Positions 21,864 to 33,225 of a stretch of DNA of 64,000 nt are shown here, one piece after another. The DNA is taken from NCBI RefSeq assembly GCF_900453205.1, contig NZ_UGQU01000003.1:558001-622000 (forward strand), given 5' to 3'. Positions within the stretch are counted from its first letter, which is position 1; each line of letters begins with the position of its first letter. Both the position numbers and the translations under genes were made by a program. The notes beneath the pieces are model-generated. The model was not told where the DNA came from and searched no databases. It saw nothing but the letters and a program-made list of their open reading frames with translations. The DNA comes from Moraxella lacunata (lineage in GTDB: Bacteria; Pseudomonadota; Gammaproteobacteria; Pseudomonadales; Moraxellaceae).

Positions 21864-21992
21864 TTTCAAATTTGGTATTGTTAATTGACTATACCTTTGG
21901 GTAGATTTGTAGGGGTAAATTGCAATTTGCCCTGTGATAAAATGTTGATTTTTGGGCGAATGTGATTTGCCCCTTGTATATCCAAAATAAGA

Positions 21993-21998
21993 TATAAT
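21993..21998 (+). promoter_or_regulatory. -10 box for the candidate bridge RNA of element A
   Basis: A perfect TATAAT in ATATAATAAGC, conserved at the same place in element B. In IS110 elements the matching -35 can be supplied by the right end when the element is circular; no strong -35 is seen at 17 bases in the integrated form. Confidence 0.6.
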
Positions 21999-22003
21999 AA
22001 GCC

Positions 22004-22160
22004 AACCCACTTATCTGTCTTTCGTTTCGCCCCTAGAATATGGCATTGACTGACTTTATACTCAAATGCCTGTTGTTCGTTTTGTAGCATTGAAACCAGA
22101 TAAGCACCCATCAACAACAACCGTACAGTTGCCAGTTTAACATCCGAATGCAAGGCAGGT
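22004..22160 (+). ncRNA. Candidate bridge RNA of IS110 element A
   Basis: Noncoding segment between the TATAAT box and the transposase. CTTATCTG (22010-22017) pairs with CAGATAAG (22097-22104) to close a loop. That loop contains GCCCCTA (22029-22035), matching the left insertion site, and TGTAG in GTTTTGTAGC, complementary to CTACA across the right junction. A hairpin GGCAT...ATGCC sits between them. The 3' part contains TACAGTTGC (22124-22132), identical to the right-end sequence, and ATGCAAGG, complementary with one G-T pair to CTTGTAT at the left end. Together these are the four guides expected of a bridge RNA. Exact ends are unknown. Confidence 0.75.
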
Positions 22161-22162
22161 TT

Positions 22163-23185
22163 ATGATGAGTATGAAATCAGCAAGCAATGAGTTAGACAA
22201 ACGCTATGTTCACTTTGTTGGCATTGACATCGCCAAAAAGAGCTTTGTGCTTGCCACTTCATTATCACCCAAAACCAAAAACTATGATAACACAGCACAA
22301 GGCATTGACCAAGCCATCTGTTTTATCAAAGATGAACAAACACAATGCGATAATGGCAAAACCTTAGTGGTTCTAGAAAGTACAGGTGGACTTGAAGTGC
22401 CCCTTGCCAAAGCCTTATGTTTGGCAGGCATTTGTGTCATGATTGCCAATCCAAGACAAACACATCAATTTGCCAAATCACAGTCCTTAACCAAAACAGA
22501 TAACAAAGACGCTAAAATGCTTGCTTTTTATGCCAAAGTGATGGCACAAAGAGATGATTTAGCCACCTTGCTTTATTGTCCACCCAGTCAAAGCCAAGAG
22601 TTATTAACCGCATTGATTAACAGACGCAATCAATTTGTCCAAATGTGTACGGCTGAGAAAAACCGCTTAGAGCAATCTCATCACAGTCAAGTGGGCAGCA
22701 TTCAAGCTCATATTGCTTATCTAACAGAGCAAATTCATGAGCTTGACAAGCAAATCAAAACCCATCTTGATGATGATAATCACCCAGACCTAAAACAAAC
22801 CAGCAGTGTCATTCAAAGCATCAAAGGTGTTGGACAAACCACTACAGCCACCTTGTTGGCAATGCTGCCTGAGCTTGGCACAATTTCACACAAACAACTG
22901 GCTAGTCTTGTGGGTGTTGCCCCACACCCCAAACAAAGTGGAGAGACTAAGTTTAAAGGTCTGTGTCAAGCAGGGCGACCAGAAGTGCGTAAGGCACTGT
23001 ACATGGCAACCTTAGTAGCTACTCGCTTTGATGAGAAAATCAAAACCTTCTATCAAAGATTAAGAACCAATGGCAAGCCCTTCAAAGTTGCCATTGTTGC
23101 CTGTATGCACAAACTACTAACCATTTTAAATGCACGGGTAAGAGATGAGTTAAAAGCCAACACTAATCTGGTTATTGCAAATTAA
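22163..23185 (+). CDS. IS110-family transposase (bridge recombinase) A
   Basis: A 340-residue DEDD-type recombinase. The RuvC-like N-terminal domain shows Asp about 22 in FVGIDIAKK, Glu about 72 in VVLESTGGLEVPLAKAL, and Asp about 113 and 116 in TDNKDAKMLA. A coiled-coil stretch (EQSHHSQVGSIQAHIAYLTEQIHELDKQ) follows. The C-terminal Tnp domain has IKGVGQTTTATLLAMLPELG and LVGVAPHPKQSGETKFKG, with the conserved Ser in QSGE. The double ATG at 22163 after GGCAGGT is the likely start. It appears intact and is related to, but clearly diverged from, the transposase of element B. Confidence 0.95.
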   Translation: MMSMKSASNELDKRYVHFVGIDIAKKSFVLATSLSPKTKNYDNTAQGIDQAICFIKDEQTQCDNGKTLVVLESTGGLEVPLAKALCLAGICVMIANPRQTHQFAKSQSLTKTDNKDAKMLAFYAKVMAQRDDLATLLYCPPSQSQELLTALINRRNQFVQMCTAEKNRLEQSHHSQVGSIQAHIAYLTEQIHELDKQIKTHLDDDNHPDLKQTSSVIQSIKGVGQTTTATLLAMLPELGTISHKQLASLVGVAPHPKQSGETKFKGLCQAGRPEVRKALYMATLVATRFDEKIKTFYQRLRTNGKPFKVAIVACMHKLLTILNARVRDELKANTNLVIAN

Positions 23186-23305
23186 CTTTTTTTACCTTTG
23201 CGTAAGGCTTTTGTATTGCACTTTGATGGGGAGTGGAATACAGTTGCTACACGTCCAAATTTTAAAATGTATTTTTATTGAACAATACCTTAAATTTTAG
23301 CGGTA

Positions 23306-31660: not shown

Positions 31661-31945
31661 CTATTTGCAGGGCACCCCATCAGACAACCACAATACTTTG
31701 GTAAAAAAGAATGGACTGGTGGGGTGAGTTTGGGGGTGGAGTTTTAATTCACAACAATCTGCATTATGCACCCATACACCCAATCTACCCACATGATAGG
31801 TGTGAAAGTCATCTACTTCAATGTTGTAGACGGTATCGGTGTGGTTTGGAATAAGAAATTGGCTTAATACTTCTACTTCTTGATTATTTCTATCAAGCAG
31901 TATCATCCCTTGTTCTAGTAAAGACGCTTTTAGCCAGTTCCGTAG
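31661..31945 (-). pseudogene. Remnant of a polymorphic toxin with Hint (intein-like) domain
   Basis: The minus-strand frame reads WLKASLLEQGMILLDRNNQE, then VYNIEVDDFHTYHVGRLGVW and VHNADCC. This is the C-terminal block of a pretoxin Hint domain, which autocleaves to release a toxin tip in RHS/CdiA/Maf-type proteins. The N-terminal part is missing because IS110 element B abuts the frame; the residues before WLKAS come from the element's end. After the Hint motif only about 25 residues remain before a stop, so no full toxin tip is present. It is a decayed fragment. Confidence 0.8.
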
Positions 31946-32007
31946 CAACTGTATCCCTAAAGAATACAGTACCACCAACCCTCATTAACTTTGTTGGCTT
32001 GTGGATG

Positions 32008-33045
32008 TTACTTAACGCTAAGATTAAGATGATAATCCGCTTGCCAAACACTGTCATTTCTAACAATGGCGTTAATGACGATTAGGAGTTTACGCATACA
32101 AGCGTTGATGGCAACTTTAAAGGGTTTGCCTTTGCCTATCAAACGCTCATAAAACTGTTTAAATTTGGGTTCATATTGTCTTGCCACATTGGTGGCATTG
32201 TATAAGACATTACGAACCGATTGCCTACCCCCTTTGCAATGGCTCTTGTATTTAAGTGTGCCACTTTCTTTGGGGTGTGGGGCAACGCCCACTAAGGAGG
32301 CGATTTCTTTATTGCTTAATGTACCAAGTTCAGGTAACATTGACATCAAGGTAGCGACAGTAACACCACCAATCCCCTTGATGTCTTTAAACTTTTTTGT
32401 GGTGTCATCAAAATGTTTGCTTAGGGTGTCGATGTCTTGTTCTAACTTAGCAATCTGTTCATCAAGGTAAGCAATGACTTGTTTAACACTCTCAAGCTGA
32501 CTTTGATGAATTTGCCAAATACGGTTCTTTTCTTGTACACGCATTGCCACAAGCTGATGACGGCGTACTACCAATGCCTCTAAGCGTTCTTGCTCTTCGC
32601 TTGGTGGGACATAGAGCAAATGAGTAAGTTTGCTCTCATCAAGACTTAAAAACTTGGCATAAAGAGCAAGCATTTTGGCATCTTGGTTATCTGTCTTAGC
32701 ATTAGAATAAGACTTAGCAAACTGGCTGGTTTTATTAGGATTGGCAATCACCACATTAAAGCCTGATTGATACAGGGCTTTGGCAAGGGGGATTTCTAAT
32801 CCGCCTGTACTTTCAAGTACTACCAAAGCTAGGTTTGTGCCTGCATTGGTATTAAGATAAGCCATCGCTTGTTTGATGTCGCCCCCAGTGTTTGAAAAGG
32901 TTTTGGTTTTATCCTTACAAGAAAGTGATACCACAAAGACCTTTTTGCCCACATCAATGCCACAGTAAATGGGTTCATTGGGCTTGTTCGCTACATTGGT
33001 TTTGGTTTGCTTGGTATTTTTGGTTTGTTTAGCATTATTCATCAT
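32008..33045 (-). CDS. IS110-family transposase (bridge recombinase) B
   Basis: A 345-residue DEDD recombinase homologous to that of element A but with many differences. Asp about 31 lies in YCGIDVGKK, Glu about 78 in LVVLESTGGLEIPLAKAL, and the third and fourth acidic residues in KTDNQDAKMLALYAKF. A coiled coil (SVKQVIAYLDEQIAKLEQDIDTL) precedes the C-terminal domain with IKGIGGVTVATLMSMLPELG and LVGVAPHPKESGTLKYKS carrying the conserved Ser. An extra Lys/Thr/Asn-rich N-terminus of about 20 residues is present. The frame is intact, so the element may be active. Confidence 0.95.
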   Translation of the reverse strand: MMNNAKQTKNTKQTKTNVANKPNEPIYCGIDVGKKVFVVSLSCKDKTKTFSNTGGDIKQAMAYLNTNAGTNLALVVLESTGGLEIPLAKALYQSGFNVVIANPNKTSQFAKSYSNAKTDNQDAKMLALYAKFLSLDESKLTHLLYVPPSEEQERLEALVVRRHQLVAMRVQEKNRIWQIHQSQLESVKQVIAYLDEQIAKLEQDIDTLSKHFDDTTKKFKDIKGIGGVTVATLMSMLPELGTLSNKEIASLVGVAPHPKESGTLKYKSHCKGGRQSVRNVLYNATNVARQYEPKFKQFYERLIGKGKPFKVAINACMRKLLIVINAIVRNDSVWQADYHLNLSVK

Positions 33046-33049
33046 TAAC

Positions 33050-33196
33050 CTGCCTTGTATTCGGTTTAGAGTCTATCAACTGTACGGTTTTGATTGATGA
33101 AAGGTTATCCACTCTTAAAGCTACGACACGAACTTAATCTTGGGTGGTTGCCCTTATGGTTCTAAGGTGCGTACAAGATGTGGATAACGGGTTTTT
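33050..33196 (-). ncRNA. Candidate bridge RNA of IS110 element B
   Basis: Read on the minus strand, GTTATCCAC (33180-33188) pairs perfectly with GTGGATAAC (33104-33112). The equivalent stem in element A has different bases but also pairs. The loop holds GTACGCACCTT (33164-33174), matching the left flank GTACACACCTT at 10 of 11 positions, the difference being a permitted G-T pair. It also holds CGTAG in GTGTCGTAGC, complementary to CTACG across the right junction. The 3' part has TACAGTTG (33077-33084), identical to the right end, and ATACAAGG near 33055, complementary to the left end. Transcript ends are unknown. Confidence 0.75.
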
Positions 33197-33200
33197 GCTT

Positions 33201-33206
33201 ATTATA
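33201..33206 (-). promoter_or_regulatory. -10 box for the candidate bridge RNA of element B
   Basis: TATAAT on the minus strand in GGTATAATAAGC, at the same position as in element A relative to the stem. No good -35 is visible in the integrated form. Confidence 0.6.
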
Positions 33207-33225
33207 CCTTAAAAGGGGGTATACA

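What the first reader, a model, noticed from the sequence alone, without database searches (positions are those of the whole stretch)
21973..23248. IS110 element A carries a candidate bridge RNA whose guide matches its own insertion site in a MITE
Seen: the noncoding stretch 22004-22160 contains GCCCCTA (22029-22035) inside a closed loop. The element is inserted after GCCCCT (21969-21974), and taking it out restores GCCCCTA. Extended, guide GTTTCGCCCCT and target GATTTGCCCCT agree at 9 of 11 bases. On the other side of the loop TGTAG is complementary to CTACA across the right junction. The 3' part repeats TACAGTTGC from the right end. Known: IS110 recombinases such as IS621 use a bridge RNA with separate target and donor guides. 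Inference: this is a complete, natural bridge system pointed at a repeat arm.
Basis: partly seen in the sequence, partly recalled or inferred. Interest (0 to 1): 0.92.

Follow-up and report, generated by a model that had tools for sequence, protein, structure and literature searches.

The report
Bridge-RNA insertion sequence in a hairpin repeat
A small jumping gene carries the recipe for a guide RNA whose parts match the repeated hairpin it jumped into and its own ends; it looks like a complete natural member of the recently described bridge-RNA systems, and its relatives show odd duplications of their own left end.

Summary
Confirmed. 21975-23248 is a 1274-bp IS110-group element: recombinase 34% identical to IS621 with its DEDD and Ser residues aligned, 188-bp left end, 63-bp right end, CT core. 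The predicted left-end RNA (about 22005-22168) follows the published IS621 scheme: left target guide (8/9 here, 9/9 at a relative's site), right target guide GUAG, left donor guide ACAGUUGC (8/8), right donor guide, handshake bases. Beyond chance: over 8 IS110 families the true pairing of targets with left ends beats every other of 40,320 permutations; the target-loop stem has both-side changes at 9 of 13 pairs. Four complete copies and one remnant have a ...CCCT flank, but one (L026) fits the left guide at only 4/9. The "MITE" is a REPIN-like twin hairpin; TT(C/T)GCCCCTACA occurs 79 times in the genome. Unlike IS621 there is no room for a 5' stem-loop. Verdict: new member of a known kind. Extra: a relative's copy has a 60-bp left-end duplication ending exactly at its own target guide; E. 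coli IS621 has the like in 10 of 5,426 genomes, and similar ones at other CCT sites. Their cause is open. Transcription and activity untested.

The parts
21908..21974 (.). Left 67 bases of the interrupted twin-hairpin (REPIN-like) repeat; its last three bases ACA lie at 23249-23251
   Evidence: 24 repeats with TGTAGGGG...CCCCTACA ends in the genome (5 of them with another arm sequence)
21966..21974 (+). Left target half plus core, TTTGCCC-CT
21973..21974 (+). CT core, left copy
21975..23248 (+). Complete IS110-group element A (one core copy included, at its right end)
21993..21998 (+). -10 box TATAAT; in the circular form it lies 17 bases from TTGCTT (23244-23248 plus 21975; 3 of 6 bases of the -35 consensus)
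   Evidence: the linear-window scan lists no + strand promoter in the left end
22005..22168 (+). Predicted bridge RNA (both ends inferred)
22010..22017 (+). Target-loop stem, 5' arm (pairs 22097-22104)
22026..22034 (+). Left target guide UUCGCCCCU
22084..22087 (+). Right target guide GUAG; 22081-22083 UUU its extension; 22088-22089 CA handshake bases, complementary to donor TG (23245-23246)
   Evidence: read by eye; register from PMC11208158 passages
22097..22104 (+). Target-loop stem, 3' arm
22125..22132 (+). Left donor guide ACAGUUGC, 8/8 to the right end 23240-23247
22148..22154 (+). Right donor guide AUGCAAG, pairs with CTTGTAT (21973-21979) with one G-T as in IS621; 22155 G handshake base for target position 7
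   Evidence: scheme
22163..23185 (+). Transposase/recombinase CDS (start 22163 or 22166; the ATG at 22148 lies in the donor guide and is ATA in element B)
23239..23248 (+). Left donor half TACAGTTG plus core CT (right end of element)

Best explanation
Element A is a natural IS110-group (IS621-like) bridge-RNA transposon. Excision as a circle brings its right end next to its left end, which forms a promoter (TTGCTT-17-TATAAT) that would transcribe a roughly 160-nt RNA from the left end. Its first internal loop pairs with the repeat arm TT(C/T)GCCC-CT-ACA, its second with the circle junction ACAGTTG-CT-TGTAT; the DEDD/Ser recombinase cuts after CT in both and exchanges strands, so the element lands between the hairpin stem and the outer AC(A) of REPIN-like repeats. 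Shown by sequence: ends, core, guide matches, guide-target covariation, conserved catalytic residues. Inferred: transcription, circle formation, activity, order of strand exchange.
For: Pfam IS110 domains; phmmer to IS621 8wt6 E 3.8e-41 with DEDD and Ser aligned, 34% identity. Right flank ACA in 4 of 4 complete copies. Element B (54% aa): left flanks ACACACCTT 5 and ACGCACCTT 3 of 8, guide ACGCACCTT (8-9 of 9); right flanks AC 8 of 8. Family E: right flank GAG in 6 of 6 copies read, and its RNA carries CUCAG instead of GUAG, so the right guide follows the target too. Families C, D, E, the N. gonorrhoeae remnant and IS621 match their own target at 8-9 of 9. Permutation 1 of 40,320. Stem covariation: 0 of 500 shuffles on four of five measures.
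Against: No expression or activity data. Own match is 8/9; L026's outer site only 4/9. The Avibacterium target fits its own left end at 7/9 in the IS621 register and A's left end better (8/9); the N. gonorrhoeae target fits the Avibacterium left end as well as its own (8/9). Copy by copy in Avibacterium the own guide is no better than a shuffled one (73 against mean 73.3). In one search the measure 'further pair types' went the other way (499 of 500 shuffles as high). No bridge-RNA family among Rfam matches up to E 10. The -35 half is weak and fails the scan's threshold. Minimum-energy folds of single sequences did not return the proposed donor loop.
Confidence: 0.93

Rival explanations
1. The element is an IS110 transposon whose site choice is set by the protein; the left-end matches are coincidence or a relic.
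For: For the single copy, 106 of 2000 shuffles reach 8/9.
Against: True guide-target assignment is the best of 40,320 over 8 families; the right guide changes with the right target in family E; stems covary.
Confidence: 0.03
2. The element works but its RNA is a reduced bridge RNA (no 5' stem-loop) that depends on RNAs from other copies in trans.
For: Single complete copy in this genome; the -10 box leaves no room for a 5' stem-loop; the published structure suggests that the two loops come from two RNA molecules.
Against: Relatives whose left ends also seem to lack it have many copies (B 8, A. paragallinarum 15), and guides and donor loop are intact in A.
Confidence: 0.04
3. The left-end duplications (60 bp in L026; 47, 72, 85, 114 and 423 bp in E. 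coli IS621) are made by the recombinase joining its own left end to an internal CT, either by insertion of a circle and later loss of one copy by homologous recombination, or by exchange between sister copies.
For: In the 11 places with distinct site or distinct breakpoint that I read, the duplicated piece starts at core|TGTAT and ends at a CT; shared bases at the breakpoints are only 4 in L026, 2 in L115, 3 in L128. The same ybiT-ybiU insertion carries a 72-base duplication in some strains and an 85-base one in another, so they arise after insertion.
Against: No nested-dimer right junction and no reciprocal deletion for the one repeat form queried in 5,426 E. coli genomes. My queries fixed the left start, so a start elsewhere would mostly be missed. 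Most breakpoints share CCT or more with the flank, so slippage is not excluded. The 47-base form occurs up to 7 times in one genome, so a duplicated form can itself spread and places are not all independent events.
Confidence: 0.45
4. Those duplications come from slipped mispairing between the flank (...GGCCT) and similar stretches in the left end, of which the guide is one by design.
For: GGCCTTG (7 bases) shared in IS621 at the guide, GCCTT at the 114-base site; all four sites searched end in CCT.
Against: Only 2-4 shared bases at L026, L115, L128 and L129-L131; the reciprocal deletion was not found.
Confidence: 0.4

Closest known systems
IS621 of E. coli (IS110 group) and its bridge RNA (PMC11208160, PMC11208158)
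   Same: CT core, donor right half CTTGTAT, right guide GUAG, 9-nt left guide, 8-nt left donor guide ending in C, right donor guide ending CAAG with G opposite T, handshake bases; insertion at CCT|AC of a palindromic repeat
   Different: 34% aa identity; A has no room for the 5' stem-loop, lacks the two extra U of the right donor guide, has a shorter donor hairpin, and aims at another repeat family
ISCro4 transposase (PDB 9t56)
   Same: Second solved relative, E 1.7e-36
   Different: Its RNA was not compared here
Element B of the same genome and the Avibacterium paragallinarum element
   Same: 54-56% aa, donor left half ACAGTTG-CT, same compact RNA layout
   Different: Target guides and target repeats differ
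REPINs / REP elements (the target)
   Same: Two inverted hairpins with GTAG/CTAC outer ends, many copies; REP elements are targets of IS elements (PMC1525189, abstract seen). The REPIN definition is recalled.
   Different: No Y1 (RAYT) transposase match in this genome

Membership tests
IS110 family, IS110 group (bridge-RNA transposons) | DEDD RuvC domain PF01548 plus PF02371 with conserved Ser | tested here: met
   residues named
IS110 family, IS110 group (bridge-RNA transposons) | Left non-coding end longer than right; RNA in left end | tested here: met
   188 against 63 bp
IS110 family, IS110 group (bridge-RNA transposons) | Core dinucleotide at both ends, insertion without further target duplication | tested here: met
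   CT; empty repeats of the same make-up
IS110 family, IS110 group (bridge-RNA transposons) | Target guides match the insertion site and covary | tested here: met
   Avibacterium only 7/9 in this register
IS110 family, IS110 group (bridge-RNA transposons) | Donor guides match the circle junction | tested here: met
   read by eye against the scheme
IS110 family, IS110 group (bridge-RNA transposons) | Target-binding internal loop closed by a covarying stem | tested here: met
   9 of 13 pairs changed on both sides, 95.6% of cells paired
IS110 family, IS110 group (bridge-RNA transposons) | Donor-binding internal loop closed by a covarying stem | tested here: inconclusive
   inner 4 pairs never vary, outer 5 pairs 82.9% paired with no both-side change
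IS110 family, IS110 group (bridge-RNA transposons) | 5' stem-loop before the target loop (in the published consensus; not shown to be required in all) | tested here: not met
   -10 box ends at 21998, target stem starts at 22010
IS110 family, IS110 group (bridge-RNA transposons) | Promoter rebuilt at the circle junction | tested here: inconclusive
   TATAAT 6/6, 17-base spacing, TTGCTT 3/6
IS110 family, IS110 group (bridge-RNA transposons) | Transcribed RNA bound by the recombinase | not testable with these tools
   none
IS1111 group | Right end longer than left, with the RNA there | tested here: not met
   right end 63 bp
REPIN (target repeat) | Two inverted hairpins with GTAG at outer ends, many copies | tested here: met
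   24 full copies, 127 half sites
REPIN (target repeat) | RAYT (Y1) transposase in the genome | tested here: not met
   no PF01797 match at E 0.001

The most novel reading that the evidence does not exclude
Bridge-RNA transposons attack their own left end: the DNA that encodes the left target guide is by design a target half-site with a core, and the recombinase joins the element's own left end to it (and to other nearby CCT sites), leaving tandem left-end duplications that can then spread as longer forms of the element. The guide-site outcome appears in two systems of 34% identity: the element-A relative in G011 and E. coli IS621 (10 genomes, four places).
Probability: 0.4. Interest if true: 0.6.

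Novelty: new member of a known kind. Interest (0 to 1): 0.42.

Why it matters
It gives a compact bridge RNA, without room for the 5' stem-loop of IS621, with all guides readable and with close relatives whose target guides have been re-aimed in nature while the donor side stayed nearly fixed. That is a ready test of which RNA parts are needed. The left-end duplications raise a question that I did not meet in the passages I read: how such an element is kept from its own guide gene, which matches the guide perfectly and differs from a true target only on the right side ('self-target' and 'own bridge' have no hit in PMC11208160; PMC11208158 was not searched for them).

Tried and rejected
Rfam: 10 matches up to E 10, all of unrelated families below their gathering scores. 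Plasmid DNA search gave two N. gonorrhoeae records with a 67-base match; one was read and is an element remnant with a matching guide. Viral contigs: one fragment of an Avibacterium-type element without its left end. RAYT search empty. Search of 299 genomes of the family at E 1e-60: 2 matched, both in the genus. The linear promoter scan found 5 promoter-like sites against 3.6 expected, none on the + strand in the left end.

Considered: bridge RNAs in Avibacterium acting in trans, because some copies' flanks fit another copy's guide (L051, L052, L063: 9/9 to another guide, 6-8/9 to their own; best-of-pool sum 81 against own 73 of 90). Not concluded: guide type and a right-end variant (AGCTG/AGCGG before AATACAG) occur in all four combinations (L054, L061, L052, L055, read off), so copies exchange sequence by homologous recombination, which would scramble guides as well. 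Of 15 A. paragallinarum copies, L053, L057, L059, L062 and L065 were dropped from the left-flank count (no intact left end; another element's end seems to lie there); A. gallinarum L060 and the cut-off L064 were left out of it too. The ten loci outside Avibacterium were not used.

A first claim of mine that the guide site is favoured was tested and dropped: exact junctions at four CCT sites of the IS621 left end occur in 9 (47 bases), 10 (72 bases, guide), 3 (85) and 2 (114) of 5,426 genomes, and the 47-base form has 32 places, up to 7 in one genome, so places are not independent. Other CT sites were not searched. One search was a badly designed query (its halves match normal IS621 ends separately); replaced. 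Nine IS110 loci from plasmids were fetched for a wider RNA alignment and not used. In one search the three Avibacterium rows are near-identical, so counts there overstate independence.

Full report
The thing itself. Reading the window gives left junction GATTTGCCC-CT-TGTATATCC and right junction ATACAGTTG-CT-ACACGTCC. The element is 21975-23248, core CT. The transposase has both IS110 Pfam domains and aligns with IS621 (E 3.8e-41) and ISCro4 in the PDB; identity with IS621 is 108 of 314. The DEDD residues and the Ser named for IS621 (passages of PMC11208158) are aligned with D27, E77, D118, D121 and S264 of the 345-aa ORF (read by eye). The likely start is 22163 or 22166, since the ATG at 22148 lies in the donor guide and is ATA in element B.

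The target. Without the element the site reads TGTAGGGG...GGGCGAATGTGATTTGCCCCTACA, a repeat of 70 bases made of two inverted hairpins. The genome holds 24 repeats with perfect TGTAGGGG...CCCCTACA ends (each is listed on both strands; 5 of the 24 have another arm sequence) and 127 GCCCCTACA half sites (61 forward, 66 reverse; 0 and 1 for the reversed-pattern control), and 79 sites TT(C/T)GCCCCTACA (39 and 40; controls 0). The layout is that of a REPIN as I recall it, but no Y1 transposase was found. Only one complete A copy and one remnant in another repeat (L010: a 51-base match, about 41 bases of left end after TTTACCCCT) were found in this genome.

Copies. G011, a genome of the same genus, has three copies (95% aa). 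Right flanks start ACA in 4 of 4 complete copies. Left flanks: window TTTGCCCCT, L022 TTCGCCCCT, L030 TTTGCCCCT, remnant TTTACCCCT; L026 has an outer flank ACACACCCT (4 of 9 to the guide) with a right flank CTACAAAAC, complementary to GTTTTGTAG over nine bases.

The RNA. I laid the left end on the IS621 scheme by eye, using numbered positions given in PMC11208158 (passages) and PMC11208160 (abstract, sections 5, 6, 7, 12 and passages). Order in A: stem from 22010, linker GU, left target guide 22026-22034 UUCGCCCCU, one A, hairpin, GU, UUU, right target guide GUAG, handshake CA (complementary to donor T6-G7), stem to 22104; then donor stem, GU, left donor guide ACAGUUGC, CA, short hairpin, GA, right donor guide AUGCAAG against CTTGTAT with G opposite T as in IS621, handshake G (target C7), stem 22158-22168. 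The IS621 sequence itself (L114) shows the corresponding strings. There is no room for a 5' stem-loop between the -10 box (21993-21998) and the stem. In the circle TTGCTT and TATAAT are 17 apart; the -35 fits 3 of 6. Minimum-energy folds of single sequences gave the target stem in most but not the donor loop.

Controls. Seven left ends (A, A of G011, B, two A. paragallinarum, A. gallinarum, N. gonorrhoeae remnant) were aligned. For the named structure 94.1% of 170 cells pair and 10 of 25 pairs have both-side changes; 0 of 500 shuffles reach the observed value on four of five measures, while on 'further pair types' 499 of 500 do; slid controls pair 28-43%. The support lies in the target-loop stem; the donor stem hardly varies. 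Guides: I took consensus 9-mer targets of 8 families (A, from its two G011 copies L022 and L030; B; C; D; E; Avibacterium; N. gonorrhoeae, one copy; IS621, one copy) and one left end each. Own matches are 8-9 of 9 except Avibacterium at 7 (its guide fits one base further left), whose target fits A's left end better (8); the N. gonorrhoeae target fits the Avibacterium left end equally well (8). The true assignment sums to 66; over all 40,320 permutations of that matrix the mean is 52.4 and only the true one reaches 66. Right flanks: B AC 8 of 8, D 9 of 9, C 2 of 2, Avibacterium 13 of 16, E GAG 6 of 6, with CUCAG in the E RNA where others have GUAG. E was read from 6 of 34 copies listed.

Left-end duplications. 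L026 has its first 60 bases twice: outer flank, left end up to GTTTCGCCC-CT, then the whole element. I searched E. coli (5,426 genomes) for the matching IS621 junction: 10 genomes carry it exactly over 40 bases (rows H88-H97; 232 records matched in all, the rest partly), and these ten were read: rhlE-ybiA (3 genomes), ybiT-ybiU (4), prpE-codB (1), gldA-yijF (2), each a 72-base duplication with one right end. One near-match read as a control (L121) is an ordinary insertion. Others, with the same start and ending at other CT sites: 47 bases (three records read of nine, at three loci; 32 places, up to 7 in one genome), 85 bases (L128 read, of 3 genomes), 114 bases (L127 read, of 2 genomes), 423 bases inside the gene (L115, a plasmid-collection record). 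L128 sits at the same ybiT-ybiU insertion as the 72-base form, so two different duplications arose there. The nested-dimer junction and the reciprocal deletion, for one repeat form, were not found. So the guide is one such place, not the only or clearly preferred one; recombinase action is plausible but slippage is open, and the 47-base form has evidently spread.

Relation to what is known. IS621 inserts into REP elements and its bridge RNA is established (PMC11208160); REP elements as targets of several IS elements were reported in PMC1525189 (abstract and outline seen); re-aiming of guides between related elements is described for ISEc11/ISXne4 in PMC11187229 (passages seen). My searches for Moraxella with IS110 and insertion sequence (9 listed), bridge RNA/IS110/Moraxella (23 listed), IS621/IS110/tandem/bridge RNA (15 of 155 listed) and IS110 with target guide or self-insertion (10 listed) showed no paper whose title or opening of the abstract treats this element or such duplications; the library lacks most subscription papers. 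That the genus is Moraxella is my guess; no call names it.

Noticed in passing
31944-33225 (minus strand): Element B, a second IS110 (54% aa to A), 1282 bp, one of 8 copies in the genome; targets a different hairpin repeat (GGTGCGT...ACGCACCTT), target core apparently TT, donor left half same as A.
   Followed up: yes
L026, 1297-1416 of the reverse complement: 60-bp tandem left-end duplication ending exactly at the copy's own target guide and core.
   Followed up: yes
L051-L059, L061-L063, L065, L070, L072 (Avibacterium paragallinarum): Fifteen copies in one genome carry three target-guide alleles (GTCCGCCCC, ATACGCCCC, GTCCGCCCT); copies also exchange other variants.
   Followed up: partly
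L113, about 1395-1570 (Neisseria gonorrhoeae): Left end of a related element with guide GCCCGCCC and flank GCCCGCCCT, the transposase gene apparently lost beyond its start.
   Followed up: partly
L053, L057, L059, L062, L065: Another element's end (GGGGCTGT-type on the other strand) seems to sit in the left end of five Avibacterium copies at slightly different places.
   Followed up: no
22039-22069: The window copy has 31 bases more in the target-loop hairpin than the G011 copy.
   Followed up: no
G011, 34 copies of family E: A high-copy IS110 whose right target is CTGAG in 6 of 6 copies read, with a matching changed right guide.
   Followed up: partly
NZ_CP044313.1 and two sister strains: IS621 with a 47-base left-end duplication at 7 places per genome: a duplicated form that seems to have spread.
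   Followed up: no
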